Source: Candidatus Magasanikbacteria bacterium RIFCSPHIGHO2_01_FULL_41_23 (lineage in GTDB: Bacteria; Patescibacteriota; Patescibacteriia; Magasanikbacterales; UBA922). Taken from it: DNA of 39,089 bases. The notes beneath the pieces were generated by a model. The model was not told where the DNA came from and did no database searches. It worked only from the letters and a program-made list of their open reading frames with translations. Shown piece by piece: positions 551 to 39,089 of this stretch (its first letter is position 1; every line of letters starts with the position of its first letter). Both the position numbers and the translations under genes were made by a program. The stretch spans positions 1-39,089 of the forward strand of contig MFPT01000004.1 of NCBI GenBank assembly GCA_001782805.1, given 5' to 3'.

Positions 551-649
551 TATACATAAGGAAGGGCACAATTGAGAAAATTATATTTTATTTTCAGTCC
601 CCTGAGCTAAGTCGAAGGGGATTTTTATTTTTTAATATTTTGTTACGCT

Positions 650-19279: not shown

Positions 19280-19410
19280 ATAAAAAAAGAGAGCTGATAA
19301 AAGCCTCTTCATTTTAGCGGTTTATGACAAATTTGGCAAATTCACGATTATTAAAAAACCTCTAAAATAAAAACCACCCATTTATAGGTGAAGTATATGT
19401 TTTGTCCGCG

Positions 19411-19446
19411 CCGTGTTTCGTCAACGCTGGAGCGAACAAAACACGG
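19411..19446 (-). terminator. Hairpin downstream of the small ORF at 19460-19750
   Basis: CCGTGTTT (19411-19418) / AAACACGG (19439-19446). Confidence 0.45.
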
Positions 19447-19459
19447 ACACGGCACAGGA

Positions 19460-19750
19460 CTAGACCGGATCTGGAATCTGCACGAAACTTGGAAGAAGCT
19501 TCGACCAATCCGACCTGTTGAACGGCAACTTCTTGTAGATGGCCGGCTCAACTCGCACGTAAACTACGAAAAACTTGAGCTTCCCGATCACGTGCTGAAC
19601 CTTGGTGACGAGACCGATGTGAACAGGGTCGTCATCTTCGGTCCAAAACGTGATATTTTCCCCTTCACGGGGCTGGTGTTCAAGACCACCGATATCACGG
19701 CAGAAGAACTGCCGACTATCGATGTACACCACAAGAGTAAGCGTCGTCAT
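19460..19750 (-). CDS. Hypothetical protein (MTTLTLVVYIDSRQFFCRDIGG...), GC-rich
   Basis: GGAGG SD 4 nt upstream of ATG at 19750; preferred over the overlapping + strand ORF 19388-19795. Confidence 0.6.
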   Translation of the reverse strand: MTTLTLVVYIDSRQFFCRDIGGLEHQPREGENITFWTEDDDPVHIGLVTKVQHVIGKLKFFVVYVRVEPAIYKKLPFNRSDWSKLLPSFVQIPDPV

Positions 19751-19865
19751 ACATCCTCCAGGTTTTGTGGCTATCACCACAAACGAAAAACATAGCGGTC
19801 AATTGTAAGCTAACAAGAGATTATCTAAATTGTCAAGCGGAGATATATTAAAACTCAAATAAATA

Positions 19866-19894
19866 TTTACAATCAGCCACGATTCTGGTATAGA
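19866..19894 (+). promoter_or_regulatory. Predicted sigma70 promoter (TTTACA-17-TATAGA)
   Basis: TTTACA 19866-19871, TATAGA 19889-19894 upstream of ORF 19940-20284. Confidence 0.55.
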
Positions 19895-19939
19895 TACATA
19901 TGCTCGTACAAATACGAGCAATCACAAGGAGAATGGTTC

Positions 19940-20284
19940 ATGACCACTTTGCACAAGGAAATGAGAATCGAGTTGCCACTTCCGGGTCGCAACTACGCCG
20001 CTTTCGGCTTCCTGGACGAGGGCGAGGAATCGGTCGATGCGAGCACCATGTTCGCCCGCACCGGAGGCAAGAACCGCGTGATCGCGGGTGACAAGGATTG
20101 GGAGTTGATCAAGGCTCATCTGCGATGGATCAACCCTACTCTCAAAGATTTCCACCTCGTCACGAAGCGAGATGCGGACGGCAGCCCTCGTTCCAACTGG
20201 GGTGGCGGTCACTCGTGGGACGAGTGGTATGGCATCGGCGATAAGTGGAACGCCGATGGTCTCGTTATCTGCTGTGTCGAATGA
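19940..20284 (+). CDS. Hypothetical protein (MTTLHKEMRIELPLPGRNYAAFGFLDEGEES...), GC-rich
   Basis: AAGGAG SD, upstream promoter, TGA stop, downstream hairpins. Confidence 0.65.
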   Translation: MTTLHKEMRIELPLPGRNYAAFGFLDEGEESVDASTMFARTGGKNRVIAGDKDWELIKAHLRWINPTLKDFHLVTKRDADGSPRSNWGGGHSWDEWYGIGDKWNADGLVICCVE

Positions 20285-20356
20285 GCTATCGGCACTTGGA
20301 GCCGAGAGGTCTTGGGTCTTTTGGGCTCTTGATCTCTCGGTTCCTCAATCAAAAAA

Positions 20357-20402
20357 TTTTAAAATTCCTGCTAAGATATAAATCTAACGGGAATTTTTTT
20401 AT
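20357..20402 (+). terminator. Rho-independent terminator-like hairpin after ORF 19940-20284
   Basis: AAAATTCC...GGGAATTTTTTT. Confidence 0.55.
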
Positions 20403-20405
20403 TTA

Positions 20406-20447
20406 ATCCATCTTAAAATCATAAAAATTTATGAACTTAAGATGGAT
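20406..20447. repeat. Long near-perfect palindrome between convergent genes
   Basis: ATCCATCTTAA-AA-TCATAAA-AA-TTTATGA-AC-TTAAGATGGAT. Confidence 0.8.
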
Positions 20448-20515
20448 CTGTAAATTGCGGTTTACAGACCCCCCTTGTCCGAAACTCCGTCCGCAAACGG
20501 AATGCTTGACCCAAG

Positions 20516-21787
20516 CTAAAGCACTTTGTGTTCAGGCTTGAATTCTCGACCAATGGCGTAGGCCGAGATGTCCAACTGAACACCGTCGAGATCCATGGTG
20601 TTGCCACCGACTTCCAGCTTGTGCCGGACAATGCGAGCCGTAAACGGCGAGTGCATTGCTCCGTGGCCGGAAAAGCCGACAGCGTGAACCAAGTTCTTGA
20701 CGTGCTTGTCGTTGTCGATGAACGGGTTGTGGTCCGGAGCGTTGTCGTAAACCCCGCTCGTATGTTGAACCATTCCCAAATCACCGAGTACCGGAAGCCA
20801 CCCGGCGAGCTCGCGCCACATCTCGACAGCATAGCCGTCCAGATCATGTGCGCTAAAGCCCACGGGGACCTCGTCTTGGCACCTGTCCGGTGCCTCTGCT
20901 CGGTACGGATCTGTCCTCCTGATCCAGCCCAGGATCATCTTGTCACCACTCAGCTCAGGCCGACAGTAGGCTCCACAGTCAGTAGCCACGAATGGCCACT
21001 CTGAAAAGTCTACTGTAAGACCGTTTTTGCTGAGGTAGTAGACAAACACCTTTTTAGGCTCTATCTCCGGTTGGGGATAAAGACCTGGCGTGGACCAAAG
21101 TGCTTGGGTCTTCATTGTCCAAAGTCCTGTGGCATTGACTACGAAGTCGCAGGCCACATCAACTTTGTCGCCGTATCCCACGACATCTAGGTCGGTATTC
21201 CGAAGAACCTTCCTGGCATGCAGTCGTGTGATACGATCTCCACTCAAGTCCACTCCAAGGACTTCAGTGTTACGGTAGTGCACGACACCGAGTCTTTCCG
21301 CGACCTCGCATGCCGTGCTGTAGATGACTTCTGGTCTCATGAAGCCATCCGTCGGACACCAAGTGCCACCGAGAATATCGCGGCTCACATACGGAAATCG
21401 CGCGGCGACCTCCGTTTGAGTGAGAACCACGGCCTCGGTCAGACCACACTGGCGTTGTAGAGCATTTTCTGTCTGCGCAACCGTGAACTGTTCCGGATCA
21501 CGGTAGACAAACAGATAACCGCGGGGGAAATACGCTTGGTCGGTTTCGTAACGCGATGCGAAATCGCGTAGTTGCCGTACAGCGTACATCATTCCACGGA
21601 TAGTGCTCTCGGTGCTGAACTGTTGTCGACAAGCGGCAACAGAACGGCCAGAAGCACCATTGCCCGGAGACCCTTTCTCAATGAGAGTGACTTGGTAGCC
21701 CTGTTCGGCCAAATCCAAAGCCATGTACGAGCCGGTAATCCCTGCGCCCAGAACAGCGACATGGGGTTTACCGGCAATGTTAGGCAT
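20516..21787 (-). CDS. FAD-dependent oxidoreductase, DAO (DadA/sarcosine oxidase-like) family
   Basis: HVAVLGAGITGSYMALDLAEQGYQVTLIEKGSPGNGASGRS dinucleotide-binding motif; C-terminal GFSGHGAMHSPFTARIV. Confidence 0.88.
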   Translation of the reverse strand: MPNIAGKPHVAVLGAGITGSYMALDLAEQGYQVTLIEKGSPGNGASGRSVAACRQQFSTESTIRGMMYAVRQLRDFASRYETDQAYFPRGYLFVYRDPEQFTVAQTENALQRQCGLTEAVVLTQTEVAARFPYVSRDILGGTWCPTDGFMRPEVIYSTACEVAERLGVVHYRNTEVLGVDLSGDRITRLHARKVLRNTDLDVVGYGDKVDVACDFVVNATGLWTMKTQALWSTPGLYPQPEIEPKKVFVYYLSKNGLTVDFSEWPFVATDCGAYCRPELSGDKMILGWIRRTDPYRAEAPDRCQDEVPVGFSAHDLDGYAVEMWRELAGWLPVLGDLGMVQHTSGVYDNAPDHNPFIDNDKHVKNLVHAVGFSGHGAMHSPFTARIVRHKLEVGGNTMDLDGVQLDISAYAIGREFKPEHKVL

Positions 21788-21833
21788 AACATTCACCTTC
21801 TTTGCCTTTTCTCGCACTGTTTTTGACACTCGC

Positions 21834-23534
21834 TTAGCGCTGACTGAACTGAACGATGGCCTCCTCGAAGGTCATCTCTCGGCGTTCATCAGTGCGGCGA
21901 TTCTTGACTTCCACGATCCCTTCGTTAGCCCGACGGCCAACGATGATCTGGAAGGGGTAACCAATGAGATCAGCATCAGCGAACTTCGCGCCAATGCGGA
22001 TATCACGGTCGTCCAAGACCACCTCGCCAGTCCTGAGAAGCGACTGGTAAAGGGTCTCGGCGGCGGCGACCTGAGCAGAAGTAGCGGAAATGATCGCCAC
22101 TTTGTAGGGAGCCAGAGCCTCTGGCCAGATCATCCCTTTGTTGTCGTAGTTCTGTCGCTGTTCGATGGCCGCGGCCATGATGCGCGAAACACCAATGCCG
22201 TAGCATCCCATCCAGATGGTCTGGACAGTGCCGTTGACATCAGTGTACGTGGCGTTCATGGCTTCGGAGTACTTGCGGCCGAGCTGGAAGATGTGCCCGA
22301 CCTCAATCCCCTTTTGGATGCCGAGTTTTCCCTGTCCACACGCGGCACAGGTGTCTCCCACTTGTGCGTTACGCAAGTTGTAGAAACGCTCGGGCATGGC
22401 CAGATCACCACGACCAACGTTGACGTCAAGCCAGTGCTTATCCGTCTCGTTGCCACCGCAAAGGAAGTTATGGAGTCCCTTGACGGTTTCGTCGAAGTAG
22501 ATCGAACACTTGAGCCCGATGGGGCCGGCGAATCCGACTTGCGCACCAGTGGTTTCGATCACGATCTGGTCCGAGGCCAGCTCCAGCTCGGTTGCGCCGA
22601 GCAAGTTCTTGAGCTTGGTCTCGTTGATCACTTGATCACCACGAATGCAGACAGCGACGGCCTTGGTGTTGTCCACCCAATAGATGATCGTCTTGACCAT
22701 CTGCGCTCCGGAGATGCTGAACATCTGGGAGAGTTCCTCCACGGTTCTCGCGTTGGGAGTATCTTCCAGATGCGCGTCCTTCATGGTGACGGACTCGTCG
22801 TTCGCGGTGCAGAGTCCCACGGCCTTCTCTTGGTTGGCACCGTAGGAACACTGGTCGCACGAAACAACAAAATCCTCGCCTGTCTGAGCGAGTACCATGA
22901 ACTCTGCACTGCCAGTGCCGCCGATCGCGCCACTGTCAGCTTCCACCATGACGAAGTTGAAACCGCACCTCGTGAAGACACGGTTGTAGGCGTCGCGCAT
23001 GTCCGCGTAGGACTTGCGCATGCCCGCCTCGTCGAGATCGAAGCTGTAGGCATCCTTCATCAGGAACTCACGGCCGCGAATGATGCCCCCATGCGGGCGG
23101 ACTTCATCGCGGAACTTCGCGCCGATCTGGTAGAGGTTAACCGGGAGCTGACGCCACGAAGTCACGTTATCCCTTACGAGAGCCGTGACTGCCTCTTCGG
23201 CCGTCGGTGCCAGAGCCAGGTCTTGCCCCTTTCGATCCCGGGAAGTGAAGAAGGTACGAGACGCCGAGTAGACATCCCAACGCTTCGTCTCATCCCAGAT
23301 CTCGCGCGGTTGCAGGATGGGGAGACTGATCTCCACCGCTCCTGCCTGATCCATCTCTTCGCGCACGATGCGCGAAGCTTTTTGGATCACCCGCCAACCC
23401 AGATGGGCGTAAGTGTAGAGTCCTGCGGCCAATTGTCGGATGAACCCGGCGCGGACGAGGAGCTGATGGCTCGGAATCGTCGCGTCGCGTGGGTTCTCCC
23501 GCAATGTGCCGGGAACCAATTTTGAGACACGCAT
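21834..23534 (-). CDS. proS: Prolyl-tRNA synthetase, bacterial type with editing insertion
   Basis: RAGFIRQLAAGLYTYAHLGWRV, APTAEEAVTALVRD, KFRDEVRPHGGIIRGREFLMKDAYSFD, YGIGVSRIMAA; GAGGTG SD. Confidence 0.96.
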   Translation of the reverse strand: MRVSKLVPGTLRENPRDATIPSHQLLVRAGFIRQLAAGLYTYAHLGWRVIQKASRIVREEMDQAGAVEISLPILQPREIWDETKRWDVYSASRTFFTSRDRKGQDLALAPTAEEAVTALVRDNVTSWRQLPVNLYQIGAKFRDEVRPHGGIIRGREFLMKDAYSFDLDEAGMRKSYADMRDAYNRVFTRCGFNFVMVEADSGAIGGTGSAEFMVLAQTGEDFVVSCDQCSYGANQEKAVGLCTANDESVTMKDAHLEDTPNARTVEELSQMFSISGAQMVKTIIYWVDNTKAVAVCIRGDQVINETKLKNLLGATELELASDQIVIETTGAQVGFAGPIGLKCSIYFDETVKGLHNFLCGGNETDKHWLDVNVGRGDLAMPERFYNLRNAQVGDTCAACGQGKLGIQKGIEVGHIFQLGRKYSEAMNATYTDVNGTVQTIWMGCYGIGVSRIMAAAIEQRQNYDNKGMIWPEALAPYKVAIISATSAQVAAAETLYQSLLRTGEVVLDDRDIRIGAKFADADLIGYPFQIIVGRRANEGIVEVKNRRTDERREMTFEEAIVQFSQR

Positions 23535-23624
23535 ATTTCACCTCTGAAGTGAATGACAACACACCACCGTGGTGCTTGCCTTATTATTCAGACTAGCATG
23601 ACACGATTATCCAGTCAATAAATC

Positions 23625-24434
23625 TTATTTAATCTGCTTTTTCAAAAAAATTGCTCTCTTATACGCCATCTTTGTCGCCTTTTTATATATTTTTGCTAAA
23701 TTACTGGGATCAATAATTTTAAAAGCGGCTTCAGTTGTTCCGCCTTTGGAAGTAACCTTATTTCTTAAAACACGAGCGTCTTCTTGGCTTCCTTTAAAAA
23801 GAAATCCGGCACCAATTATTGTTTGGACAACTAATTTTTTGGCCTGGATTTTATTGAAACCTAAAGCTCTGGCTGATTCAATCAAATGACTCGCAAAATC
23901 AAACACATATGCCGGCCCGCTCCCACTTATGGCCGTGGATGCATCAATACTTTTCTCAATCTTAACTTCCATTTCCTCACCTAATTGGGAAAATAATTGC
24001 TGTACGATTTTTTTTTGCTCCGGACTTATTATATCTGCTTTCCACACCGTCATCCCAAATCCAATTTGCGCCGGAGTATTGGGCATACATCGCACAATTT
24101 TTTTAGTGCCCAGTATTTTTTCAATCGTCTGAATGGAAACCCCGGCCATAATTGATACAAATACTTGATTCACAACAAAAGGTTTAATACTCTCCAACAT
24201 TTCTTTGGCTTGTTGCGGTTTAACTGATAACAAAACCACATCTTTATCAACCAATCCGTCTTTGTTATTTTCTGAAACACCAATTTTATATCTGTTTTTT
24301 AATTCTTCCAAACGCGGAATTATAGGAGAACAGGCCGTAATATCTTTGGGATCAACTTGTAAATTCTCAATAAATTGTTTAATGAAAACTTCTCCCATCA
24401 CTCCGGCGCCAACAATCCCGATTTTTTTAAACAT
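23625..24434 (-). CDS. proC: Pyrroline-5-carboxylate reductase
   Basis: IGIVGAGVMGEVFIKQFI, VRCMPNTPAQIGFGMTVW, SGSGPAYVFDFASHLIESARALG. Confidence 0.94.
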   Translation of the reverse strand: MFKKIGIVGAGVMGEVFIKQFIENLQVDPKDITACSPIIPRLEELKNRYKIGVSENNKDGLVDKDVVLLSVKPQQAKEMLESIKPFVVNQVFVSIMAGVSIQTIEKILGTKKIVRCMPNTPAQIGFGMTVWKADIISPEQKKIVQQLFSQLGEEMEVKIEKSIDASTAISGSGPAYVFDFASHLIESARALGFNKIQAKKLVVQTIIGAGFLFKGSQEDARVLRNKVTSKGGTTEAAFKIIDPSNLAKIYKKATKMAYKRAIFLKKQIK

Positions 24435-24436
24435 AT

Positions 24437-25501
24437 TTAAATAATAATTAAATCATCAACGTGAATAACTTCTTGATTATATATTTTTTCTTTTTTCAAT
24501 AACAATCCATGTAAATCATGGTAATTAATTTTTACCATACCAATTGCCAGTTGGTCTCCTTCCTCATCAAGGACATCAATTACTTCTCCTTTATTAAAGG
24601 TTCCGTAAATTTTGGTAACTCCCACGGCCAACAAACTTTTTCTTTTTTTAAGTGCCTCAGCCGCACCCGCATCTATTTTAATGGATCCCGTGGAAATTTT
24701 AGTTGACACCAGCCACCGATCACGATTTTTTAACAAAACTTTTTGATTGGGCAAGAAAATCGTGCCTTCGCATTCTCCATTAATTATTTTTTCAATGATT
24801 CTTTCTTTTTGACCATTGGCAATAACCATCGTAATACCAAAACACGAGGCTAAACGCAGCGCACGCAGTTTGGCAATCATGCCGCCGCTGCCATGTTGGG
24901 AAACATCAGTGTCACATTGACGCATCAGTTCTTTGGTCACATTTTCCACTTTGGAAATTAATTTTGCATCAGAATATCTACTGGGATCTTTATCAAATAA
25001 GCCATCAACATGAGACAAATTAATCACCATATCCGCCTCAATCGCGAGCGCAATGACTACGGCCAAACTATCATTATCTTTGTAACTGGCAACTGTGCCA
25101 TTCGTTACCGCATCGTTTTCATTTATCAAAGGCACAATGCGGTGCTTAAGCAAATCTTTTATCATACCACCCATATTGTGGTATGACTGCATATCAGCCA
25201 TGTCATTTTTCCCCAAAAGAATTTGGGCAATCAAAAGCGACTCTTTGGAAAATTCATCAGCATAAATAGAAGTTAGATACGTTTGCCCAATGGCCGCGTA
25301 TGCTCTTTTATTCAAATCAGTTTTATTTTTATGTAAAAATCTTCCGGCCGCCACTGCGCCGGAGGTAACAATAATTATTTCACAATTTTTGGTTTGTAAT
25401 AATTTTATTTCTTTAACGAATTTGGCAATGATCGCGCGATCAATATCACCGCTTTTTTTTATAAGTGTGTGCGTGCCAATTTTTACCACAATTCTTTTCA
25501 T
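24437..25501 (-). CDS. proB: Glutamate 5-kinase with C-terminal PUA-like domain
   Basis: RIVVKIGTHTL, VTSGAVAAGRFL, AAIGQTYLTSIYADEF, NENDAVTN, DNDSLAVVIALAIEADMVINLSHVDGLFDKDP. Confidence 0.95.
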   Translation of the reverse strand: MKRIVVKIGTHTLIKKSGDIDRAIIAKFVKEIKLLQTKNCEIIIVTSGAVAAGRFLHKNKTDLNKRAYAAIGQTYLTSIYADEFSKESLLIAQILLGKNDMADMQSYHNMGGMIKDLLKHRIVPLINENDAVTNGTVASYKDNDSLAVVIALAIEADMVINLSHVDGLFDKDPSRYSDAKLISKVENVTKELMRQCDTDVSQHGSGGMIAKLRALRLASCFGITMVIANGQKERIIEKIINGECEGTIFLPNQKVLLKNRDRWLVSTKISTGSIKIDAGAAEALKKRKSLLAVGVTKIYGTFNKGEVIDVLDEEGDQLAIGMVKINYHDLHGLLLKKEKIYNQEVIHVDDLIII

Positions 25502-25510
25502 AAAATCATT

Positions 25511-26794
25511 CTAACGAATTTGGCCTTGACCAAATACAATGTATTTTGTCACGGTCAATTCTTCCAATCCCATCGGTCCCATACCATGAATTTTGGAAGT
25601 GTTGATTCCTATTTCCGCGCCCAAACCAAATTCATTGCCATCAGTAAATCTGGTGGAAGCATTTACATACGTGGCCGCGCTATCTACGGAATTAATAAAT
25701 TTCCACGACTCATTATAATCTTCGGTAATTATACCATCAGCCAAATGAGTGCCAAAAGTATTGATATGATCAATCGCTTCTGACAAATCGTTTACAACTT
25801 TGATGGTTATTTTTAAATCCAGATATTCAGTCACCCAATCAGTGTCAGTCGCCGGTATTACATCGGGAATTATGGCCTGGGTTTTTTCACAGCCTCGGAC
25901 TTCAACTCCGACATCCCGCAGTTCTTTTATTAAATCAGGCAAAATAATATGTGCAATTGATTCATCAACCAAAACTTTTTCCAAGGAATTACAAGTTGAG
26001 GGATTGGAAACTTTGGCGTTACAGACAATTTTTTTGGCCATGGTCAAATCAGCGTTTTTGGATACATAAATATGCGTAATGCCTTGACGATGACTCAAAA
26101 CCGGCATGCGAGCATGCGCGCAAACCGCGTCAATTAATTTTTCTCCGCCGCGCGGTATCATTAAATCAATATATTTATCAAGTTTGGCCAATTCTGCCAC
26201 GGCCACATGATCAGTAACAGAAACCATTTGTAAAAAATCAGGGGAAATGCCAGCCGATTGTACGGCTTCTTTGATAAGATTAGAAAGAACAATATTGGTG
26301 TGCAAAGATTCTTTGCCACCGCGCAAAATACACGCATTTCCGGATTTTAAAGCCAAAGCCGCAATGTCCACTGTAACATTAGGGCGTGATTCATAAATAC
26401 AACAAATGACACCAATCGGAATGCGAATTTTCCCAATCCGCAAACCATTCGGCCGCACTGTCATTTTTACTACTTCTCCAATGGGATCGGGCAAATTAAT
26501 TATATCCATCACGCCTTTAGCTATGGCATTTATTTTTTCCGGTGTTAGCAACAATCGATTTTTTATTACATTACTCACCGTTGGATTATCAATCATGAGA
26601 GCATCCATGTCCAACCTATTCGCGTCAATAATTTTATTACTGTTTTTAAAAAGCGAATCAGCAATTTCTTTTAACGCGTGATTTTTCTGTGTTGTAGAAA
26701 TTGATCGTTGTTTGAATGATGCCAATTTTGCTTTTTTGGCTTGATCAAGAATTATCTGAGTAATATGTGTATTGTCCATAGATAAACGTATCAT
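25511..26794 (-). CDS. proA: Gamma-glutamyl phosphate reductase (start 26794 or 26779)
   Basis: IRIPIGVICCIYESRPNVTVDIAALALKSGNACILRGGKES, SNPSTCNSLEKVLVD, ASTRFTDGNEFGLGAEIGINTSKIHGMGPMGLEELT. Confidence 0.96.
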   Translation of the reverse strand: MIRLSMDNTHITQIILDQAKKAKLASFKQRSISTTQKNHALKEIADSLFKNSNKIIDANRLDMDALMIDNPTVSNVIKNRLLLTPEKINAIAKGVMDIINLPDPIGEVVKMTVRPNGLRIGKIRIPIGVICCIYESRPNVTVDIAALALKSGNACILRGGKESLHTNIVLSNLIKEAVQSAGISPDFLQMVSVTDHVAVAELAKLDKYIDLMIPRGGEKLIDAVCAHARMPVLSHRQGITHIYVSKNADLTMAKKIVCNAKVSNPSTCNSLEKVLVDESIAHIILPDLIKELRDVGVEVRGCEKTQAIIPDVIPATDTDWVTEYLDLKITIKVVNDLSEAIDHINTFGTHLADGIITEDYNESWKFINSVDSAATYVNASTRFTDGNEFGLGAEIGINTSKIHGMGPMGLEELTVTKYIVFGQGQIR

Positions 26795-26800
26795 TTTTAT

Positions 26801-26867
26801 AAAAACTCCAGAGTTTACTGGAGCTATCTAATATATATGCAGAAACAACACTATACTAGATAGCGCA
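26801..26867 (-). promoter_or_regulatory. Structured 5' leader of proABC: upstream stem plus terminator-like hairpin
   Basis: GCTATCTA/TAGATAGC (26823-26830 / 26857-26864) next to CTCCAG-TAAACT-CTGGAG-TTTTT (26801-26823). Confidence 0.6.
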
Positions 26868-26917
26868 TTGGCGGAGGTACGATTTTATTTTTAAAAAATT
26901 TCATAAAGTTAATAAGA

Positions 26918-26946
26918 AATATACTATACAAGATTTTCTTTGTCAA
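26918..26946 (-). promoter_or_regulatory. Predicted sigma70 promoter of proABC (TTGACA-17-TATATT)
   Basis: TTGACA 26946-26941, TATATT 26923-26918. Confidence 0.65.
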
Positions 26947-27035
26947 TAAAGTTTAAACAAAAAATGCTTTTGTTGGAGGGGGGGTCAGAGCGTCGCAACA
27001 ATCGTGCTAAGCCCTGACCAGAGTCACCACAGTCA

Positions 27036-27503
27036 CTACTTTAGGAACACACGCTTGATTTCCCGGCGATTATCCTCAAACGCTGTCCGAGAATGAAGCA
27101 CACGCCAGTTGTCCCAGATCAGGAATGAGTTGCACTGGTAGAAGAACGCAACATGATGTTCATTGAACCAGTAGAAGCACTGCTTCATGATCGCAGTCAT
27201 AACGGGATCATGACTGTATTGCATGCAGTTGTAGCTGTAACGCAGGAGTTCCTCACCATCGAGGGTTTCCAAAAATGGATGAACAGCCACCATTCCCAGT
27301 CCACTCGACTGGATACCTGAACTCGAGACGAACTGGTAGGACTGGTTCCGACAATAGTCACGTTGCTCTTCGGTGAGTGTGGCCAAAGCAACGTGATCCA
27401 CTCCATCGTCGATCTTGGAGAGGAACAACCACCCTTGACGCGCGAGCTCGCGCTTCCACTCAACCAGTTGTTCTGTACACGGCAACCTGTGCAGTGTTCT
27501 CAT
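27036..27503 (-). CDS. Short TauD/TfdA-like (2OG-Fe(II) oxygenase C-terminal half) protein
   Basis: C-terminal NSFLIWDNWRVLHSRTAFEDNRREIKRVFLK resembles the distal His/Arg motif of TauD-type oxygenases; AAGGAG SD. Confidence 0.55.
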   Translation of the reverse strand: MRTLHRLPCTEQLVEWKRELARQGWLFLSKIDDGVDHVALATLTEEQRDYCRNQSYQFVSSSGIQSSGLGMVAVHPFLETLDGEELLRYSYNCMQYSHDPVMTAIMKQCFYWFNEHHVAFFYQCNSFLIWDNWRVLHSRTAFEDNRREIKRVFLK

Positions 27504-27586
27504 GACTTTTTCTCCTTATAAAAACAGATATAAAAATTGTATCATTATAATTATCGATAATCAAATTTTTTCCCAATATTATTTAG

Positions 27587-27757
27587 CTTGATAATAAGTC
27601 CGTCTCCCCAATTGATCATGACGCGTTTGGTTGGCATGTGGTTCATGGTGAGCGAAGTCGAACCATTATGATCGGCCCCGACATAAAGTCGGGGTAAACT
27701 CCGGCAAAGAAGTCGGCGACTGCGGTGAAACTGCCACGGCTTATGAGGGGATCGATG
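27587..27757 (-). pseudogene. Degenerate partial copy of the giant gene C-terminal region, with palindromic insertions
   Basis: AATAAGTCCGTCTCCCCAATTGATCATGACGCGTTTG and CAAAGAAGTCGGCGACTGC shared with 30022-30110; reading frame broken. Confidence 0.8.
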
Positions 27758-27943
27758 TCAACTTTGATTATACCGTTCAATTAATTTTCGCTGATCTTCA
27801 TTGGCACCATTGATTGCGCCCATTATTAATTTTCGTTTTTCTGCTTCTGATGCGGTACGAAAAAATTCCCCGGCACTGGCTTGCGTTGAACTTGTTGAGA
27901 TATCCTTGACCGGTGAAAATATTTTTTTGAAAAACCGGATCAT
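27758..27943 (-). CDS. Hypothetical 61-aa protein
   Basis: ORF track; C-terminal SEAEKRKLIMGAINGANEDQRKLIERY looks protein-like. Confidence 0.5.
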   Translation of the reverse strand: MIRFFKKIFSPVKDISTSSTQASAGEFFRTASEAEKRKLIMGAINGANEDQRKLIERYNQS

Positions 27944-27961
27944 ACTACATCAAACCAAAGT

Positions 27962-28321
27962 TTATTTATTATCTGAATCAATTTTCTTTTGAATTTTTTT
28001 AATTAAGCGTTCCAGCTTAGGTATCTCAACTTGACAAACATTCCAAGATAAAGCCAGATCAACATGATAATACTCGTGAATTAATATATCACGCATTCCA
28101 CTAATACTCTTCCAAGGAATTTCCGGATGCTCTGTGCGTAACATGGTGGGTAGTGATTTGACTATTTCTCCGATGATTTCTATACGACGATTTACGCAAT
28201 CCTGTGCTTTTATTGATCCTAAAAAATCCTTATAATCTAATCCATTAATGTAGTCATAGATCAGTTCACAAGATACTAATATATCCTGTAACAGAACAGA
28301 TACCATTCGTACTTTTTTCAT
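27962..28321 (-). CDS. HepT-like toxin (DUF86)
   Basis: RDILIHEYYHVDLALSW contains the RX4HXY motif; adjacent to MNT-type nucleotidyltransferase. Confidence 0.85.
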   Translation of the reverse strand: MKKVRMVSVLLQDILVSCELIYDYINGLDYKDFLGSIKAQDCVNRRIEIIGEIVKSLPTMLRTEHPEIPWKSISGMRDILIHEYYHVDLALSWNVCQVEIPKLERLIKKIQKKIDSDNK

Positions 28322-28629: not shown

Positions 28630-28859
28630 ATATTTTTATTTTACTACACAAGTTCTAAATCGTCAAAATTCAGATATTCAAGGAAATGTTTATCCCCACA
28701 TTTCTTGACTTTCAGTATAAAACACTATCTAATACGTTTATGTTGTTCTTTCCTAATTTAGGTGAGGCCTAAGCAGACACAGAAAAATGGTGCGCCACTG
28801 TGTTGTGGAAAATGTCCCGATTTTTATCGGGATAATTTCCGCGACATAGGAGGTTTATC

Positions 28860-29458: not shown

Positions 29459-32400
29459 TTATGGCACAACCACTATTGTACCTTTATACTTAATGAATGA
29501 ATCAGGGTTAGTTGAGTCACACAGGTCATTTACACCCCCCGTATTTTTTGGTACAGCCGTATAACACCCCGTATTCCCCGCCCCATTACAACTCCCCGTA
29601 CACCATCCCCAGTTATCCAGTATCTGAATTTTGGGTTTGAAGATACAGACAAAAGGATTGGCACTGGCCGTGTATCCTTGTTTTTTAAGGGCATCCCAGA
29701 TTTTTGATTCAATGTTAGTACCCTGACCATTATTCAATTCATTAAATTTATACACATAGTCGGCATCAATATCGGCGTCAGCTTGGGAACACGAATATCC
29801 ATGAACATATTCAAAGTAATTGGCTTCGCAGGCGCGAGTGGAATTACCAAAGTTGTGGCCATTGATGGTACAGGTTTCACTCGTGAGTGGACAATCTTCT
29901 TTAACTAGGCAGGTTACTTGTTTAGAAACGCTACATTCACCGACTTTTGGATTGGGATCAGTATCATCGGTGAGACAGAATGGTTTTTTATTTTTATATT
30001 CTCCGTATTGATTTTGATTGGTAATAAGTCCGTCTCCCCAATTGATCATGACGCGTTTGATGGGCATACGATTGTGGTCGGCAAAGGCAAAGAAGTCGGC
30101 GACTGCAGTTAAACTGCCACGGTTTATGAGGGGATCAGCTAGACCATCTTTATCTATGTCTTCGTTGATGGTGCCATTGTGACGATTGATAGTAAATGCG
30201 TTTGATTCGGCGGGAATACATTTTTGAGTATTGTCGCTGGAATAACAACGGTTTATATTTAATGAATAAATTTGTGGAGGCTGTGCCATTAAAACACTAA
30301 TGTTGTTCGTGCTTGAATCACCAATACCAAGAGCGTATGTTACATCAGACCAACTCACACTCCCAGATTTACTATTAAAATTAAATTCTTTAAAAATTTT
30401 GTTAAATAAATTACCTAGGTGAATTTTACCCTGATAATAGAAAGTCTCATTTTCTGGACCAATCTGACTATAAATTTTAGCATTGGGATTTTCTGGTTTG
30501 TTACACGAATAACTATCCCAAAAACTGTAATTTGATTTCACTACAAGTATTTGTTCAAAACTGACTGCGGTTCCTTTCAGTTTTTGATCTAATACATCAC
30601 CAGTACAACTAAAAAACGCTCCGTCAACAGCAGGATCATCAAAGATGTAATGCCTTAAAACATTCTCCCAACCAGAACTTGAAAGTGAAGTCAAAGAAAG
30701 ATTAAGTGAACCAAATGGAGGAAGATCAACATTGCGATTAATAGAAGGTATATTTGGATTATTACTACTGTAATCAGAATCAGAAAATACGTCTTTCCAT
30801 ACACGATTCGTCCAAGCCTTGTTTCTAGTTACAGCAGAATCAGTAGGATTTTCATCATAAACTTGAACAAATTCAGTACAGCGTGGTTTAAGTTCAACAA
30901 TCTCGGCAAAATACGGAGTCGCAAAAGATACGTCTGATTTCCAGCCAAAATATGTTTCCAGCCATTTATAATTATCAGCGTAGTCAATCTGATTACTACA
31001 ATATTTTTTCACACCATTTTTGTCAAAATTACAATAAATAAGCACAAATGAATGGGTGGGCACGAACGTCCACGAATTTTGATAATTCACTGTATTTTCA
31101 CCAGCCAATTCATCCATCCATCTCTTAAAAAAATCAAGGGGTTTCTTTGCTAAATCTAAATCCTCTTGTCCAAAATGCATTTTGTTTAATTGAGTGCCTT
31201 CATCAGACAAAGCAATTGCGCCGTATATAGTTTCATCTTTATGGTCACCATCCGAAATTTCCATAATCTTAAATACAAATAAACCACTTTGCTTGTTTTC
31301 AAAACCGTTAATGTAGTATGTATACTTATATTTAATATTTTTTAGTGTGGTTGGTCCGTATTCTCCACTAAAATTCGGATCAGTCGTATTTAGTTTATCG
31401 AAGTCGATAGTCATAACCTGAGCTGTATTGATATTTTTCATAATGTTTGGTGGAGCCAAAATCGGACCAAACTTTAGTTTGGCAATTTCATCTTTATACA
31501 TCGTAACATCGCTAGTTATATTGTAACTTTTTCCATATTGCGTAGTTGTCTTAAAAAAAGATATTTCCGATTCTGGAAAATCACTAGGTTTTTCATATTT
31601 TGAAATACTAAGCTTAGTGCATTGACCTTCGACTGTTGTCTGAGGACAAGAAGACCAAGATTGTTGATATTTATAAACAGTTGGACAATAATATTGCCCA
31701 GTTTCTGGATCTTGTTGTTCTGGTCCTTCGCAAAATTTTTGTCCCCCTTTTATATCAGGTTCACTTTTAACAGACACAGTCCTCTCTTTTAAAAAAGTAA
31801 AATACGTATTAAACGAAAGTCCTGATGTAAACAAAACAACAGCACTGGAATTGGTAACTGAAAAATTCTTGGTAGGAATTTTATTTTTTCCTTGTGTATC
31901 AAAATCCTGTGGAGACATAAAACCATTTTCACCAGGCTTAGGGAAACTTGTTTCGTTATACACGCCTGAAGTAAAGGAGCCATCCGTTCCAACAATTGTG
32001 TAAGCATTGTCCGTGATGTTTGGAAATGGTTTTAATTCTGCACCAGACCATGCCCACATTTGGGCTACAGCGTAAGAACGATTTTTAAAATCATCTGGAT
32101 TGGATATATTTTTATAAGCACCTGTATAGGAATTTAAATTGTTAAATGGATAATCATCCGCTGGATTAAAATTATTGGGAAAACTATTTGTATTCAACAC
32201 CCCCAATCCATTCCCACTCGCCTCAGTACAATACACTTTTCCAAATTCACCGATTTTTTCACCGGTAACACTCAATTTGACCGCATCTTCTGCGGGATAA
32301 TAGCCAGCTCCGGGAAATTTGTTATATTGATCAAAATTCGTCGCCGCCGTATCAGTGGGTAACCACGTAAGACAAGCATATTCATTGGTTGCGAGATTAA

Positions 32401-35400
32401 TCGGACGACTAAAATCGCGTTCCAAACAAAAACCGCGCAAACCAGTGTGCGTTTCCACATCACGCACTCGACTACAGACTCCGGGAATAGTAACTGCGCC
32501 AGCTGCGCCAGCACTACTGCATTCCGCGTCATTATTACAAGCTTGACCCGCTTTATCACCCACCAAATCCGAACAAATACCTTGGGGATACTCGGTGGTG
32601 TTCGCGGTGCGATAATCAGTTACGCCATTTTTGTAGGTTATTTTTTTGTACTCGCACGAACAATCACCATTTTGGCAATAATTGGCGCGCTCAAAACCGG
32701 AAAGATTTGCTTGAGACTCAAGACGAGTATACTTGGGATCTATTTGATTGATAGCAAAAGCCTGATATTTTTTCCCTTCATCCAAATTTTCTATAATACT
32801 ACTGGCAAACGGACTGGTTTTTTCGGGAAAGGCTTTGCATGATCCGATTTCCAAATATTTGGCGGCAGTGGTTGTGGAATTTACGGTATCGGGGAATGAG
32901 CCGTACAATGGATAAATACATTTTTTCTCATAACATCGTCCGCCAAAATCATTAAAACCACATTTTGCCCATTCATTTTTACTTTTACAACTATAGGTTT
33001 CAATATCGATCTGATTATTCCCCAAAACAGCCGGATTGAACAAAAATGCCAAATAAGCCACTGCGTCACCATCAAACACGACTGAAATGGTGTTACCAAT
33101 CCGATATTTATTAAATAATGAATAGCCGGAATAATCTTCACCATACCAAGAAACATCGCGGCCAACATAGGCCTCTTCGGTCAAACGATTAATGTCATCG
33201 GTGCTGAGTGGACTCCAATTAGTGCAACTGGAGCCAACTTCAGTGGCGCGACAGGCTTTATATTGAGCGCAAATGGTGCGTTGTTTTCCGGTTTGATCAG
33301 TCACGCGCACTTTGTCTTTGCATCCCAGCCATTCGCTACAGGATCGGTCACGATTAACTTTCAGTAAAACATTGGTGTCAGTCGCGCCGGTAGTAATAGG
33401 GTCAATCGGTCCATATTTATCAGTGCCTTGGGCATTGACGCCATCACTTATTTTATATGTTTCGGCCGCGTTGTATCTTAATGTGGGATTATTGGTCGCA
33501 TTAAAAAGCGCGCAACCTTGTTTGAGATTAACTTTGCCCTCACATTGTCCCGCGTCTTGGAGTAATTTTTGGTTAAAAATAACATAATACGATTTACCGG
33601 AGTCGAGGGGCTTGCCCTGAGCGTAGTCGAGGGGCTTGCCCTGAGCGTAGTCGAGGGGATCAATTAATTCCGTGCATTGATTATATTGTTCGGCGCAACG
33701 GCCAACCGCGCCATTATATTCGGCTGATTTATTTGACCAAATGCCATATTCGCCTCCAGCAATTAAATAATTACTGTAACAAGGCACAGCGCCAACGCCG
33801 GTACATGATTCACCGCTTTCACAATCACTGGTTTCTTTACATAAATTATTGCTACTGCTTTTGGCCGGATCAGTGGCGCTACATTTGCCCACTCCTTCTT
33901 GGAACCAGCCCGCATACTCAAATCCTTTGGTTTTTTCTTTGTATGAACAAATTGCCGATCCCGAAGCAGTGGGATCTTTAAAATAATCAATATTATTGTC
34001 TGATTTAAAAGCACTGCAACCAAGCTGTTCTTGCGCACACAAAATTTGCTCATAATTTTCCGGATTATTTTTTATATAACTTTCCGTAAATTTATACGCG
34101 CTTGTGGCTGTGCTGTTGGGAATTATATGATCTTCCAACGCGATTTTTTGACAGCCAACGTTACTCGTATCACAGGCATAACGTTGACGATAACTTAAAT
34201 AAATGGGTGAACTCGTGGGAGTATCGGCCGGTATAATTATGGTTGATTTAACAATGGTGCTTGGCACTTGAGTTAATAACGCCGTATAGACGGCTGATTC
34301 CAACGCGACTTTTGGGATAAAACAACCGGTTTCTCCGAACAGCACATCACAAGAACCAAGTTCATTGGAACCAACTTTTAAAGTACATTTGGTATTTTGC
34401 GTTCCTGTACACCACAAATTAAAAGCCGTGGTGTCGTGTTCATTAACAGTATTCTGCAAATCATAGAATGCGGTACAGCCCACAGCGTCTTCTCGGCACA
34501 GTCGATCAAAACCGGTAATGGCCAAGGGATTATTTAGACTGTCAGTATACGCGCGACAACCCAAAGCGCTCCCCGGCAAACCATCGGTGGGATTGGCATC
34601 ACAGGTTAACGGAACATCGGCCTGAACAGTTGTTCCATTATCCAAAGCAACCACTTGTTTCCAAGAATTTTTAATTAAATAGAGTTTTTCTTTTACTTTT
34701 GTCAGACGAAGATTATCCAAATAATACGCGCCGTTTACTCCGGACATTGCAGTACGAGTAATACGCAAAACTATTTTGCGAGTGCCATCGCCGGTAAATT
34801 GAACCGGACCAACCCGATATGATTGCCAAGTTTGACTAATCGGTACTTTGACGGTTTGAGCGGTTACGGGATCATAAGTAAAATTACCAACAATTTTATC
34901 CGTTGAGGGAGTAACTCCTTTTTCCACAAAAGAAATTTCCAAATTTTGTTGTACGCCGCGAGACCAAAATTCCAACTCATAAAATTTATCTGTTTCCAGC
35001 GTGCTCGTAACAAATGTATATTCAGCCTGATCAATATTTATTTCCAAAGAGTTTTGACCAACGGTCAATGATTCCGGTTTGACCAGTAAACCCGAACTCC
35101 ATCCGGCCAAAAGATCAGTCAACGCAGTCGGTGAATTATCTTCCGGCTCAAATTTTTGTTCCGATATGCTTTGAATGGTATTGGCGGCCGGACCAGTGTA
35201 CGCGCGACAATTGTTGGCTTCCGGCACGCAGGAATTATTTTTACCCGGCTGAGATGTTGTCCAATAAATACAAACGCCATTGTTATATATGCCGCCATTG
35301 TAACAGAGTTGGCATTTTTGTAGAGCAGGAGCTCCATCATCCCATTTGCCACCTTTGGCCTCACACATTAATTCATTCTGCTGACTTAAGGCCAAATCTA

Positions 35401-38326
35401 TGCGCAAAATACTTTCGGTCTTGCGCAATGGATGACAGGCCGGAGAAACAACAATGGTTTTACTAAGCAAACGATAGAACACTTTACCTGATTCATCATA
35501 AAGAGCGCGACAATCGGGTTTTGGCGCTCCTTGGACATAGGCATTTTTGAGCGCGGCTTCGTAACTGGTTTTATTACAATCAAGATAATTGGCAATAATA
35601 ACACTCTGACTATCGTCAACATAGGCGGGTGAGCCGGCACTAAATTCGGCTTTTATACCGGTATACGATGGAACAGTATCAATGCCGGTCAAATAAACCA
35701 AATAGTTGGTGTTGTAACGATCAGTCTTATCACTGCTTATCGGACGTAATTTATAATTTTGGATAACATAGCCGAGACTGGCTGAACCTTCCCATGAATA
35801 AAACGTTTTTTCATTGGTGCCGGTTGGCTTTTCGCAATATTCCAAATCAGAATAATACTCCAATTTTTCCCCACCGGCTCCGGCTTCATCTACATTGGTA
35901 AACTCAGCACATCCTTCATACTGTGACAGACAACTTTTTGCCTGACTGGGTATAAACTGCAAAGGGAAAACAGCCGGTTCAAACGCGCCTTTGTCCACGG
36001 GAATTTCTTGTTTAAACGTGTCATATCCAATACATTGAGCCGAACATTGATTGGCGCCCACAATACCGGTTATTGTGTCTGCATCATTGTCGGTAACCGG
36101 TTTATACGCTTCACATCCGGCTTCATCTTTGGTACAAGCCGGAGCAAATGGTTTACACAGACCAGTGTCTTTATTATTTATTGGACGCTTAAGCAGTTCG
36201 GCAATGTCACCATCATTATCCGGCCAAACTTTTTTATTGGAAATATGATTGGTTATTAAATAACAACTGTCAAATAAAGTGTTCGGAGCTTTTTTAAGAT
36301 AGGCTAGACGATCTTGGCCGCTAACTGGTACGGCTCGGGATAAAACACTGCAACCATCAGCCGAAGCCGGACACGTATAATTTTTTATTGAGTCATTAAA
36401 ATAAATCGCCGGATTCTTGCCTGTACTTATTTCATTGGTTTTATTCACTGACTGACCGGTATTGCGCCATGTTCCGTCGGATTTTGGTTCAGTGCTATAG
36501 ACTCTGCAACCAACTGATTGAGCATTGCATTGGCCAAACTCTACAGTCCGAGACAAATAAGACACGCGCGAATTATTTGCCGTGTTAGTATAAGTGGTGC
36601 AAGTGTTGTACTGTGCGGGACAGATTGATCCGCCAAAACGCCAAGTATTTTTTTCGCGCAAACAATAGCCGTAATCACCTAAACATTGGCCTTTTTCATC
36701 TTCTTTAAGACAAGTGGAAATTCCCACACATTCTTCCCGACGAGCCGGATTGCCACTGGCCAATAATTTGGGACCAAACACTTTGGCATCACAGCGCGGT
36801 TCGGGCAAACGAAGAATCCAGTCCGGATCAATCAAATGACAAAACGGATGCTCCAGACTTGGTTGACCGTTCGGATCACAATCATAAAATCCGGCCACTA
36901 CTTTGCCCAATGTCCAATTTTGCAATTGATCCGGATCAGCTTTGGCCGCGGCAATTTCAAAACCGAGCGGAACAATACGAGCACGCCGTAATTTTTGGAT
37001 ATTGGAATAACAATAATAATTATCATTGTAACATTTGCGCGGATTGGTATTATATTCATGACTCGGAGGAACTAAAGCCCAGTCAGGATGTAACAAAAAA
37101 TTATTTTTGGCATCCATGGCCTCGCGGATTGTCAAAGCCTTGCCGGTATTTGCCCGTTTAATCGCATCTCTAAACCCGGGATCAAGCACACAATTATTTA
37201 AACCGGGGTTATCCGGATTTAGACAATCACTCATTTCTTCCAGCAATGGATACGTGGTTAATTGTTGAGTGGGAATGGCAGTAAACAAAAAATTAAAGGC
37301 ATTCTGCGCCGCGGCTTTGTTATTATTAATCACGCCAGCATATTCACTAAAAGCCGAAGACACTGCGCTTTCTGTGGCCGCGCCACCACCGGACGAAGAA
37401 TCAGGCAATATACCTTCGGTCATAATGGTTTGCATGACTTGGGAAACTAGCGTATTCACAAATACTCCGGCGGCCGCGGGAATTACTTGCCACAGACCTG
37501 CTCCATAAATACCCGCGATTTGTTGTGAAGAAAGATCTGCTTGATTTTTACCGGTCAAAGCTTTGGTTTCTTCGCGAATCACATCGGCCGGAGTTTTGAT
37601 ATTGCCGGAAATCAAATCAGTGACTGCTTTGTATCCACCACCTTCTTCGCGCGAAGTTTTGGCTCCTGTTTTGGCATTTGCATTTATTCTGTCGACTTTG
37701 CTAATAAGGCCAAACGCCACACCAAAATCCGATTGATCTACTTTTAAAGATCGCACAAAAGCCTGTGACGCAAAATCACCGGCCTTTTCATCAAAATTTT
37801 CAAAACCTTTTTCCCAACTGGTTTTAAAATCGTTCCAACTGCATTTTGGAGTTGGACCGCCGCCCGCTCCCGGATCAGCATACAATTTTCTAATTCCTAC
37901 TTGCAAAAATATCTGAAACTTTAAATCCGGAGGTTTACACAAATCAAGACCAAGCGGTGAGCCAAATTGTTCAATGGCAGAAGCCGCGCTATCAAGCGCC
38001 ACTTCGGAAAAATAAGCCGCAGCGCCTTTATTAAAAGCGAGTGCTCCTTGACCTTTTCCTCCGGACGCAATATACGTGGCTGTATCATAAGCCAATTTGC
38101 GCATAAAATAAGAAAAGCCGTTTACCAATGCGCCGAGAGATGCCGACAAAAGACCTTCGGTAATTGAATCACTAATATCCTTTTGAACCAATTTGGCCAC
38201 AACATCAGGCGCCCCAACGGCCAAGACTGCTTGTGGAATAAACACACCCAAAACTTGAACTGACAAAAAAAATGATACTGCCAGACTGATGGTTATTTTT
38301 TTGGTTTGTTTCCCAAGTTTATACAT
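29459..38326 (-). CDS. Giant (2955 aa) cysteine-rich secreted protein with CBM-like and PKD-like segments
   Basis: N-terminal signal/TM (KKITISLAVSFFLSVQVLGVFIPQAVLA); repeated C-x(n)-GC-x-[AEV]-[FY] motifs; jelly-roll-like LEINIDQAEYTFVTSTLETDKFYELEFWSRG...; PKD-like RVMINWGDG. Confidence 0.85.
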   Translation of the reverse strand: MYKLGKQTKKITISLAVSFFLSVQVLGVFIPQAVLAVGAPDVVAKLVQKDISDSITEGLLSASLGALVNGFSYFMRKLAYDTATYIASGGKGQGALAFNKGAAAYFSEVALDSAASAIEQFGSPLGLDLCKPPDLKFQIFLQVGIRKLYADPGAGGGPTPKCSWNDFKTSWEKGFENFDEKAGDFASQAFVRSLKVDQSDFGVAFGLISKVDRINANAKTGAKTSREEGGGYKAVTDLISGNIKTPADVIREETKALTGKNQADLSSQQIAGIYGAGLWQVIPAAAGVFVNTLVSQVMQTIMTEGILPDSSSGGGAATESAVSSAFSEYAGVINNNKAAAQNAFNFLFTAIPTQQLTTYPLLEEMSDCLNPDNPGLNNCVLDPGFRDAIKRANTGKALTIREAMDAKNNFLLHPDWALVPPSHEYNTNPRKCYNDNYYCYSNIQKLRRARIVPLGFEIAAAKADPDQLQNWTLGKVVAGFYDCDPNGQPSLEHPFCHLIDPDWILRLPEPRCDAKVFGPKLLASGNPARREECVGISTCLKEDEKGQCLGDYGYCLREKNTWRFGGSICPAQYNTCTTYTNTANNSRVSYLSRTVEFGQCNAQSVGCRVYSTEPKSDGTWRNTGQSVNKTNEISTGKNPAIYFNDSIKNYTCPASADGCSVLSRAVPVSGQDRLAYLKKAPNTLFDSCYLITNHISNKKVWPDNDGDIAELLKRPINNKDTGLCKPFAPACTKDEAGCEAYKPVTDNDADTITGIVGANQCSAQCIGYDTFKQEIPVDKGAFEPAVFPLQFIPSQAKSCLSQYEGCAEFTNVDEAGAGGEKLEYYSDLEYCEKPTGTNEKTFYSWEGSASLGYVIQNYKLRPISSDKTDRYNTNYLVYLTGIDTVPSYTGIKAEFSAGSPAYVDDSQSVIIANYLDCNKTSYEAALKNAYVQGAPKPDCRALYDESGKVFYRLLSKTIVVSPACHPLRKTESILRIDLALSQQNELMCEAKGGKWDDGAPALQKCQLCYNGGIYNNGVCIYWTTSQPGKNNSCVPEANNCRAYTGPAANTIQSISEQKFEPEDNSPTALTDLLAGWSSGLLVKPESLTVGQNSLEINIDQAEYTFVTSTLETDKFYELEFWSRGVQQNLEISFVEKGVTPSTDKIVGNFTYDPVTAQTVKVPISQTWQSYRVGPVQFTGDGTRKIVLRITRTAMSGVNGAYYLDNLRLTKVKEKLYLIKNSWKQVVALDNGTTVQADVPLTCDANPTDGLPGSALGCRAYTDSLNNPLAITGFDRLCREDAVGCTAFYDLQNTVNEHDTTAFNLWCTGTQNTKCTLKVGSNELGSCDVLFGETGCFIPKVALESAVYTALLTQVPSTIVKSTIIIPADTPTSSPIYLSYRQRYACDTSNVGCQKIALEDHIIPNSTATSAYKFTESYIKNNPENYEQILCAQEQLGCSAFKSDNNIDYFKDPTASGSAICSYKEKTKGFEYAGWFQEGVGKCSATDPAKSSSNNLCKETSDCESGESCTGVGAVPCYSNYLIAGGEYGIWSNKSAEYNGAVGRCAEQYNQCTELIDPLDYAQGKPLDYAQGKPLDSGKSYYVIFNQKLLQDAGQCEGKVNLKQGCALFNATNNPTLRYNAAETYKISDGVNAQGTDKYGPIDPITTGATDTNVLLKVNRDRSCSEWLGCKDKVRVTDQTGKQRTICAQYKACRATEVGSSCTNWSPLSTDDINRLTEEAYVGRDVSWYGEDYSGYSLFNKYRIGNTISVVFDGDAVAYLAFLFNPAVLGNNQIDIETYSCKSKNEWAKCGFNDFGGRCYEKKCIYPLYGSFPDTVNSTTTAAKYLEIGSCKAFPEKTSPFASSIIENLDEGKKYQAFAINQIDPKYTRLESQANLSGFERANYCQNGDCSCEYKKITYKNGVTDYRTANTTEYPQGICSDLVGDKAGQACNNDAECSSAGAAGAVTIPGVCSRVRDVETHTGLRGFCLERDFSRPINLATNEYACLTWLPTDTAATNFDQYNKFPGAGYYPAEDAVKLSVTGEKIGEFGKVYCTEASGNGLGVLNTNSFPNNFNPADDYPFNNLNSYTGAYKNISNPDDFKNRSYAVAQMWAWSGAELKPFPNITDNAYTIVGTDGSFTSGVYNETSFPKPGENGFMSPQDFDTQGKNKIPTKNFSVTNSSAVVLFTSGLSFNTYFTFLKERTVSVKSEPDIKGGQKFCEGPEQQDPETGQYYCPTVYKYQQSWSSCPQTTVEGQCTKLSISKYEKPSDFPESEISFFKTTTQYGKSYNITSDVTMYKDEIAKLKFGPILAPPNIMKNINTAQVMTIDFDKLNTTDPNFSGEYGPTTLKNIKYKYTYYINGFENKQSGLFVFKIMEISDGDHKDETIYGAIALSDEGTQLNKMHFGQEDLDLAKKPLDFFKRWMDELAGENTVNYQNSWTFVPTHSFVLIYCNFDKNGVKKYCSNQIDYADNYKWLETYFGWKSDVSFATPYFAEIVELKPRCTEFVQVYDENPTDSAVTRNKAWTNRVWKDVFSDSDYSSNNPNIPSINRNVDLPPFGSLNLSLTSLSSSGWENVLRHYIFDDPAVDGAFFSCTGDVLDQKLKGTAVSFEQILVVKSNYSFWDSYSCNKPENPNAKIYSQIGPENETFYYQGKIHLGNLFNKIFKEFNFNSKSGSVSWSDVTYALGIGDSSTNNISVLMAQPPQIYSLNINRCYSSDNTQKCIPAESNAFTINRHNGTINEDIDKDGLADPLINRGSLTAVADFFAFADHNRMPIKRVMINWGDGLITNQNQYGEYKNKKPFCLTDDTDPNPKVGECSVSKQVTCLVKEDCPLTSETCTINGHNFGNSTRACEANYFEYVHGYSCSQADADIDADYVYKFNELNNGQGTNIESKIWDALKKQGYTASANPFVCIFKPKIQILDNWGWCTGSCNGAGNTGCYTAVPKNTGGVNDLCDSTNPDSFIKYKGTIVVVP
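33602..33658. repeat. In-frame tandem 24-bp repeat (2.4 copies) inside the giant gene
   Basis: GTCGAGGGGCTTGCCCTGAGCGTA x2 plus GTCGAGGGG, translating (minus) to PLDYAQGKPLDYAQGKPLDS. Confidence 0.95.
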
Positions 38327-38971: not shown

Positions 38972-39067
38972 GGTATTGTTAATTATACGTTTAAAGAATT
39001 CAAAATAAAAATTCCTCTTTGCTAACTCGTAAGCAAACTTCGTGAGACCGTTTTTCTCGACCCTCGA

Positions 39068-39086: not shown

Positions 39087-39089
39087 TAA

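What the first reader, a model, noticed from the sequence alone, without database searches (positions are those of the whole stretch)
27587..27757. Decayed partial copy of the giant gene with two palindromic insertions
This segment matches the giant gene's PKD-like region (around 30018-30137). It contains extra GGTTCATGGTGAGCGAAGTCGAACC (27640-27664) and CCCCGACATAAAGTCGGGG (27676-27694) that the intact copy lacks. It is a natural before/after pair showing small palindromic elements inserting into a relic of a 2955-aa gene, about 2 kb from the intact gene.
Basis: seen in the sequence. Interest (0 to 1): 0.62.

Follow-up and report, generated by a model that had tools for sequence, protein, structure and literature searches.

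The report
Tiny palindromic insertions in a gene fragment
A broken 170-base copy of part of a giant gene carries two small palindromic DNA insertions; the first belongs to a widespread 24-base repeat that inserts into other copies of itself and, without breaking the reading frame, into working genes such as the DNA polymerase gene.

Summary
Window 27581-27753 is the genome's only second copy of part of the 2955-aa gene (91% and 94% identical blocks around the insertions). Both palindromes are at the stated coordinates. Thirteen aligned giant proteins, the window's included, lack them at that site, so they were gained in the copy. Element 1 (27641-27664) belongs to a dispersed family: a 6-nt tag plus a conserved core, GAGCNNAGTCGA, between variable but complementary 3-4-nt arms, 24 nt in all. 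Two results fix the 24-nt unit: removing 24 nt restores the relic's codons, and elements nested in another element's core most often add exactly 24 nt (13 of 23 distinct cases in the phylum). Members sit in frame inside dnaE (exactly +8 aa), tsaD, iscS, uvrC, ruvA and the giant gene itself (two tandem units). Element 2 (27676-27702) is a different tagged hairpin, GGAGTTTA-CCCCGAC...GTCGGGG; a near relative sits inside the loop of another REP in a related genome. The kind is known (REP/CGTC/RPE repeats, some intragenic). The 24-nt arm-variable, self-nesting, frame-neutral form is a new variant as far as I could find. What moves it is unknown; Y1/RAYT transposases do not track it.

The parts
27581..27753 (-). 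Copy A: orphan partial copy of the 3' part of the giant gene, frame broken
27641..27664 (+). Element 1, 24-nt unit: tag GTTCAT + arm GGT + core GAGCGAAGTCGA (27650-27661) + arm ACC
   Evidence: unit length
27676..27702 (-). Element 2: tag GGAGTTTA (27695-27702) + hairpin CCCCGAC/GTCGGGG with 5-nt loop
   Evidence: relative L031
30011..30136 (-). Copy B: the matching segment inside the intact giant gene (state without insertions)
29459..38326 (-). Giant gene, 2955 aa, with orthologs in most relatives (70 of 95 genomes searched, window genome included, match the query segment)
33610..33657 (+). Two tandem 24-nt units of the element 1 family inside the giant gene (cores 33619-33630, 33643-33654), read as (LDYAQGKP)2; absent from 12 orthologs
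595..620 (+). Element 1 family copy (core 604-615), intergenic, arms CCCCT/AGGGG followed by T-rich DNA
27758..27943 (-). Small ORF (MIRFFKKIF...RYNQS) between hepT and copy A
19313..27961 (.). Segment holding copy A, present between hepT and aspS here but absent from the same-genus genome G001, where hepT and aspS are adjacent

Best explanation
Copy A is a dead duplicate of about 125 bp from the 3' part of the giant gene. It was later interrupted by two small tagged palindromic repeats of the REP kind. Element 1 is one copy of a 24-bp non-autonomous repeat (6-nt tag, 3-nt arm, 12-nt core GAGCNNAGTCGA, 3-nt complementary arm). I infer that a trans-acting enzyme recognises the tag, hairpin and core and places the unit at other sites without an evident target duplication; a favoured target is the core (loop) of an existing copy, between GAGC(G) and (A)GTCGA. 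Because the unit is 24 bp, insertion does not shift the reading frame, so copies persist in loops of essential proteins as 8-aa inserts. Shown: family membership, arm complementarity, the 24-nt unit, nested copies, in-frame copies in conserved genes, gain in copy A. Inferred: mobility by an enzyme, target preference as mechanism, order of events in copy A. Element 2 is a separate tagged hairpin (GGAGTTTA + CCCCGAC...GTCGGGG), about 26 nt.
For: Whole-genome search finds 37 GAGCNNNGTCGA sites against 2 for the reversed control. Arms pair at 69 of 80 positions in the window genome (shuffle mean 37.5, max 55), 77 of 88 in relatives and 253 of 356 in viral contigs. Removing 24 nt re-forms an intact outer core with paired arms in 8 nested composites against 0.15 expected. 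A phylum scan finds nested copies in 12 of 380 genomes with 1 reversed-control hit; 13 of 23 distinct ones are 36 nt long (12+24), and 12 of those 13 have outer arms paired at 3-4 of 4 positions. DnaE carries exactly 8 extra residues against three orthologs; IscS, TsaD, UvrC, RuvA and a glycosyltransferase also carry in-frame inserts. The giant gene has two tandem units absent from 12 orthologs. Copy A lacks a partner in relatives, and its palindromes are missing from all orthologs. Element 2's relative sits inside the loop of a GTCATTGCGAGC..GCGAAGCAAT repeat whose intact copies exist in the same genome.
Against: No enzyme was identified. No two strains differing only by one insertion were available. 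The before/after pair in copy A is diverged by about 10%, and its net gains (24 and 23 nt) rest on two short aligned blocks. As free hairpins the 24-nt units are weak (no more stable than shuffles), so DNA-hairpin recognition is not strongly supported by energy alone. Several in-gene inserts are not exact multiples of 8 aa, because the loops vary among orthologs.
Confidence: 0.75

Rival explanations
1. The two palindromes entered copy A as one composite piece (net 47 nt), not as two insertions.
For: MAFFT places a single 47-nt gap; the stretch between the elements is only 11-12 nt.
Against: The stretch between them reads GCC GAT CAT AAT against GCC GAC CAC AAT in the giant gene: same residues, only third-position differences. 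The 24-nt unit and element 2 occur separately elsewhere.
Confidence: 0.15
2. The palindromes are ancestral in the gene and were deleted from the giant gene.
For: None found.
Against: All 12 aligned orthologs and the window's own giant gene lack them.
Confidence: 0.02
3. Copy A is not a relic but a silent cassette or regulatory piece kept for recombination with the giant gene.
For: It lies near the gene and in the same orientation; 91-94% identity.
Against: The frame is broken. Residues that are I or L (MPIKR) and mostly R (HNRMP) across orthologs are changed to T and H in copy A. No sign of conversion and no second copy in relatives.
Confidence: 0.05
4. The repeats are ordinary REPs moved by a RAYT/IS200-type Y1 transposase encoded in the genome.
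For: The window genome encodes one Y1 transposase (150 aa). Tagged hairpins are what such enzymes bind.
Against: Element-rich relatives G028, G075, G076 and G090 have no Y1 hit, and G022 with 27 Y1 hits has 6 cores. G091 is below cut-off. The family's tag is not GTAG.
Confidence: 0.15
5. The repeats arise by local replication slippage or template switching at hairpins, not by transposition.
For: Nesting at the hairpin tip and tandem 24-nt arrays are what local copying could give.
Against: Inner and outer arms differ in many nested copies (for example TGGT/ACCA outside, ACT/AGT inside), and isolated copies share the core genome-wide and across phyla.
Confidence: 0.15

Closest known systems
CGTC-tagged REPs (Di Nocera et al. 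2013, PMC3733652), including RPE-4/RPE-6 of Rickettsia conorii and dRS3 of Neisseria
   Same: Small tagged palindromes in many phyla, no dedicated transposase, intragenic copies including replication and repair genes (dnaE, uvrA, uvrB in that paper; dnaE, uvrC, ruvA here). Relatives' copies read GTCAT + arm + GAGCGAAGTCGA + arm + ATC.
   Different: In the window genome the tag is mostly ACTTGT or GCTTGC, in element 1 GTTCAT; stems are 3-5 bp around a fixed 12-nt core, not 8-9 bp with a 4-5-nt loop; the unit is exactly 24 nt and nests in its own core.
Rickettsia palindromic elements (RPE) of about 150 bp inserted in frame in genes (reviewed in PMC10969869)
   Same: Palindromic repeats inserted in frame in unrelated functional genes.
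   Different: RPEs of that size are several times longer and encode a conserved peptide; here 24 bp, 8 residues, read in several frames and both orientations.
GTAG REPs and REPINs with RAYT transposases (PMC2817692, PMC3116915)
   Same: Tag plus imperfect palindrome, dispersed, non-autonomous.
   Different: No GTAG tag, no association with Y1 transposases in the genomes tested.

Membership tests
REP-like small palindromic repeats | 20-40 bp imperfect palindrome in multiple dispersed copies | tested here: met
   24 nt; 37 core sites against 2 in control; arms complementary
CGTC-tagged REPs | Unpaired CGTC, TGTC or CCTC tag at one end | tested here: not met
   Window genome copies carry ACTTGT, GCTTGC, GTTCAT; relatives G028, G047, G075, G076 carry CGTC/TGTC
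CGTC-tagged REPs | Stem of 8-9 bp with a 4-5-nt loop, A-T pairs first | tested here: not met
   Stem 3-5 bp and 12-nt core; element 1 itself does begin its stem with AT
CGTC-tagged REPs | No dedicated transposase; copies inside genes | tested here: met
GTAG REP / REPIN with RAYT | GTAG-type tag and a RAYT gene flanked by the repeat | tested here: not met
   Tags differ; Y1 presence does not follow copy number. Flanks of the window genome's Y1 gene were not read
RPE | In-frame insertion in functional ORFs | tested here: met
   DnaE +8 aa exactly; others in frame
RPE | Conserved encoded peptide, about 150 bp | tested here: not met
   24 bp, several frames used
MITE | Terminal inverted repeats with target duplication | tested here: not met
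   No duplication beyond 0-2 nt at copy A; 24-nt unit too small
Intrinsic terminator | GC-rich hairpin followed by a T run | tested here: not met
   No T run after either element in copy A; the copy at 604 does have one

The most novel reading that the evidence does not exclude
The 24-bp unit is the smallest known self-nesting mobile repeat: a frame-neutral element whose preferred target is the core of its own copies, moved by an enzyme that is neither RAYT nor any known REP transposase, and which adds 8-residue loops to essential proteins in reduced genomes.
Probability: 0.3. Interest if true: 0.8.

Novelty: new variant of a known kind. Interest (0 to 1): 0.5.

Why it matters
How tagged palindromes without a transposase spread has been open since CGTC REPs were described. 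Here the mobile unit (24 nt) and a favoured target (the core of another copy) can be read from sequence alone, so a mechanism can be tested. It also shows that small genomes accept such repeats inside dnaE, tsaD and iscS, which adds short new loops to essential proteins and can mislead annotation.

Tried and rejected
Y1 transposase association (not found). Rfam families (only tRNAs in the window). Exact text searches of papers for the core sequences (no relevant paper). A 'silent cassette' reading of copy A. All six frames of the unit free of stops as a special property: not supported, 4 of 20 units open in all six frames against 19% in shuffles. Unusual hairpin stability for element 1: not supported; element 2 is strongly stable (z -5). 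A record asked for by accession was not held. The first attempt to hand in this report lacked fields.

Full report
Observation. The segment 27581-27753 matches 30011-30136 of the giant gene in two blocks, 57 bp at 91% and 51 bp at 94% (genome-wide E-values 5e-17 and 3e-16, no third place in the genome). Both palindromes are present as described.

The giant gene. It is one open frame of 2955 aa. Seventy of 95 genomes, the window's own included, match a 120-aa query from its 3' part, nearly all with a single place per genome; many of the open frames are 2500-3300 aa. No Pfam or NCBIfam family was found. In the window genome copy A is the only second place.

Direction of change. In an alignment of 13 giant proteins the site of both palindromes is uninterrupted (FFAFADHNRMP in the window) in all. 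The palindromes were therefore gained in copy A. Copy A has changed residues that are conserved in the orthologs (MPIKR to MPTKR; HNRMP to HNHMP) and its frame is broken. From the aligned codons I count about 8 non-synonymous and 4 synonymous changes in 41 codons, hand-counted, which is too few for a firm rate. This fits a relic.

Place. In the same-genus genome G001 the order is giant gene, lipoprotein-like ORF, nucleotidyltransferase, hepT, aspS, with hepT directly next to aspS. In the window 8.6 kb lies between hepT and aspS (small ORF, copy A, a TauD-like ORF, proABC and others). Copy A sits near one edge of that segment. Its origin (duplication or transfer with the segment) is not resolved.

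Element 1. The core GAGCNNNGTCGA occurs 37 times in the genome against 2 for the reversed pattern. Flanks pair across the core over 3-4 nt while varying in sequence, so pairing is kept and letters are not. A 5' tag is shared (mostly ACTTGT or GCTTGC; GTTCAT in copy A). Related copies in G028, G047, G075 and G076 carry GTCAT.

The 24-nt unit. Some copies lie inside the core of another. Testing every removal length around each core, 24 nt restores an intact outer core with paired arms in 8 composites, against 0.15 in a control with exchanged right flanks. An independent scan of 380 genomes of the phylum gave 25 matches in 12 genomes with one reversed-control hit. Of 23 distinct composites 13 are 36 nt long, that is 12 + 24, and 12 of these 13 have outer arms paired at 3 or 4 of 4 positions. 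The viral-contig set is noisier (8 of 35 at 36 nt, 5 of them with fully paired arms). Taking 24 nt (27641-27664) out of copy A leaves GTG|ATTATGATC, which on the minus strand reads D-H-N-H-M-P, the state expected from the orthologs.

Copies in genes. Of 22 GAGCNNAGTCGA copies whose surroundings were read, 12 lie in frames open on both sides. DnaE has exactly 8 extra residues (SSTSLTAS) against three orthologs with no other gap in the segment; IscS, TsaD, a glycosyltransferase, UvrC and RuvA carry inserts at the same place as the element, of sizes that depend on variable loops. RuvA, TsaD and IscS align to solved structures with the insert unmatched. The giant gene carries two tandem units, (LDYAQGKP)2, where 12 orthologs have a short variable loop.

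Element 2. The hairpin CCCCGAC/GTCGGGG occurs 6 times in the genome against 0 in control and is very stable (z -5). In copy A and in four other copies it is preceded by GGAGTTTA. In relative G088 (L031) a close relative lies inside GTCATTGCGAGC...GCGAAGCAAT, of which intact copies are present in that genome. In both cases the net gain is about 23 nt, which would fit a 26-nt piece replacing 3 nt; two cases are too few to be sure.

Spread. GGTTCATGGTGAGCNNNGTCGAACC is present in a Planctomycetota and a Chitinophagaceae genome. CCCTGAGCNNAGTCGAAGGG is in more than 120 stretches of viral contigs. Copy numbers vary strongly among relatives (37 in G000, 44 in G075, 23 in G028, few in most).

What moves it. 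Y1 transposases (PF01797) do not follow copy number. The literature reports the same lack for CGTC REPs and reports copies in dnaE and uvr genes (PMC3733652), and also REP dimers lying inside other palindromes. So the kind is known; the exact 24-nt arm-variable unit nested in its own core was not found in the papers searched, a search limited to an open-licence library.

Verdict. The finding is real and its interpretation is mostly right. The more interesting matter is the family to which element 1 belongs.

Noticed in passing
28860-29336 (+): GC-rich 158-aa lipoprotein-like ORF on the opposite strand next to the giant gene, with a diverged ortholog in the same place in G001 (29% identity).
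   Followed up: partly
27962-28629 (-): HepT/MNT toxin-antitoxin-like pair conserved next to the giant gene in G001 (70-75% identity).
   Followed up: partly
595-640 (+): An element 1 family copy with arms CCCCT/AGGGG runs into T-rich DNA and may serve as a terminator; L014 shows the same.
   Followed up: no
13876-13914 and 39051-39089: Related shorter core GAGCTTGTCGA with paired arms (CAAT/ATTG; CCCT/AGGG).
   Followed up: partly
27036-27503 (-): 155-aa TauD-like ORF matching only the C-terminal part of the family; probably truncated.
   Followed up: no
28810-28835: Another perfect palindrome, ATCCCGATTTTTATCGGGAT type, upstream of the 28860 ORF.
   Followed up: no
L227 7969-8018: Viral contig with an element nested three deep (Russian-doll hairpin).
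   Followed up: partly
L098 1501-1720 (G028): Tandem array of a 68-bp repeat, each with one CGTCATCCTGAGCGAAGTCGAAGGAT unit.
   Followed up: no
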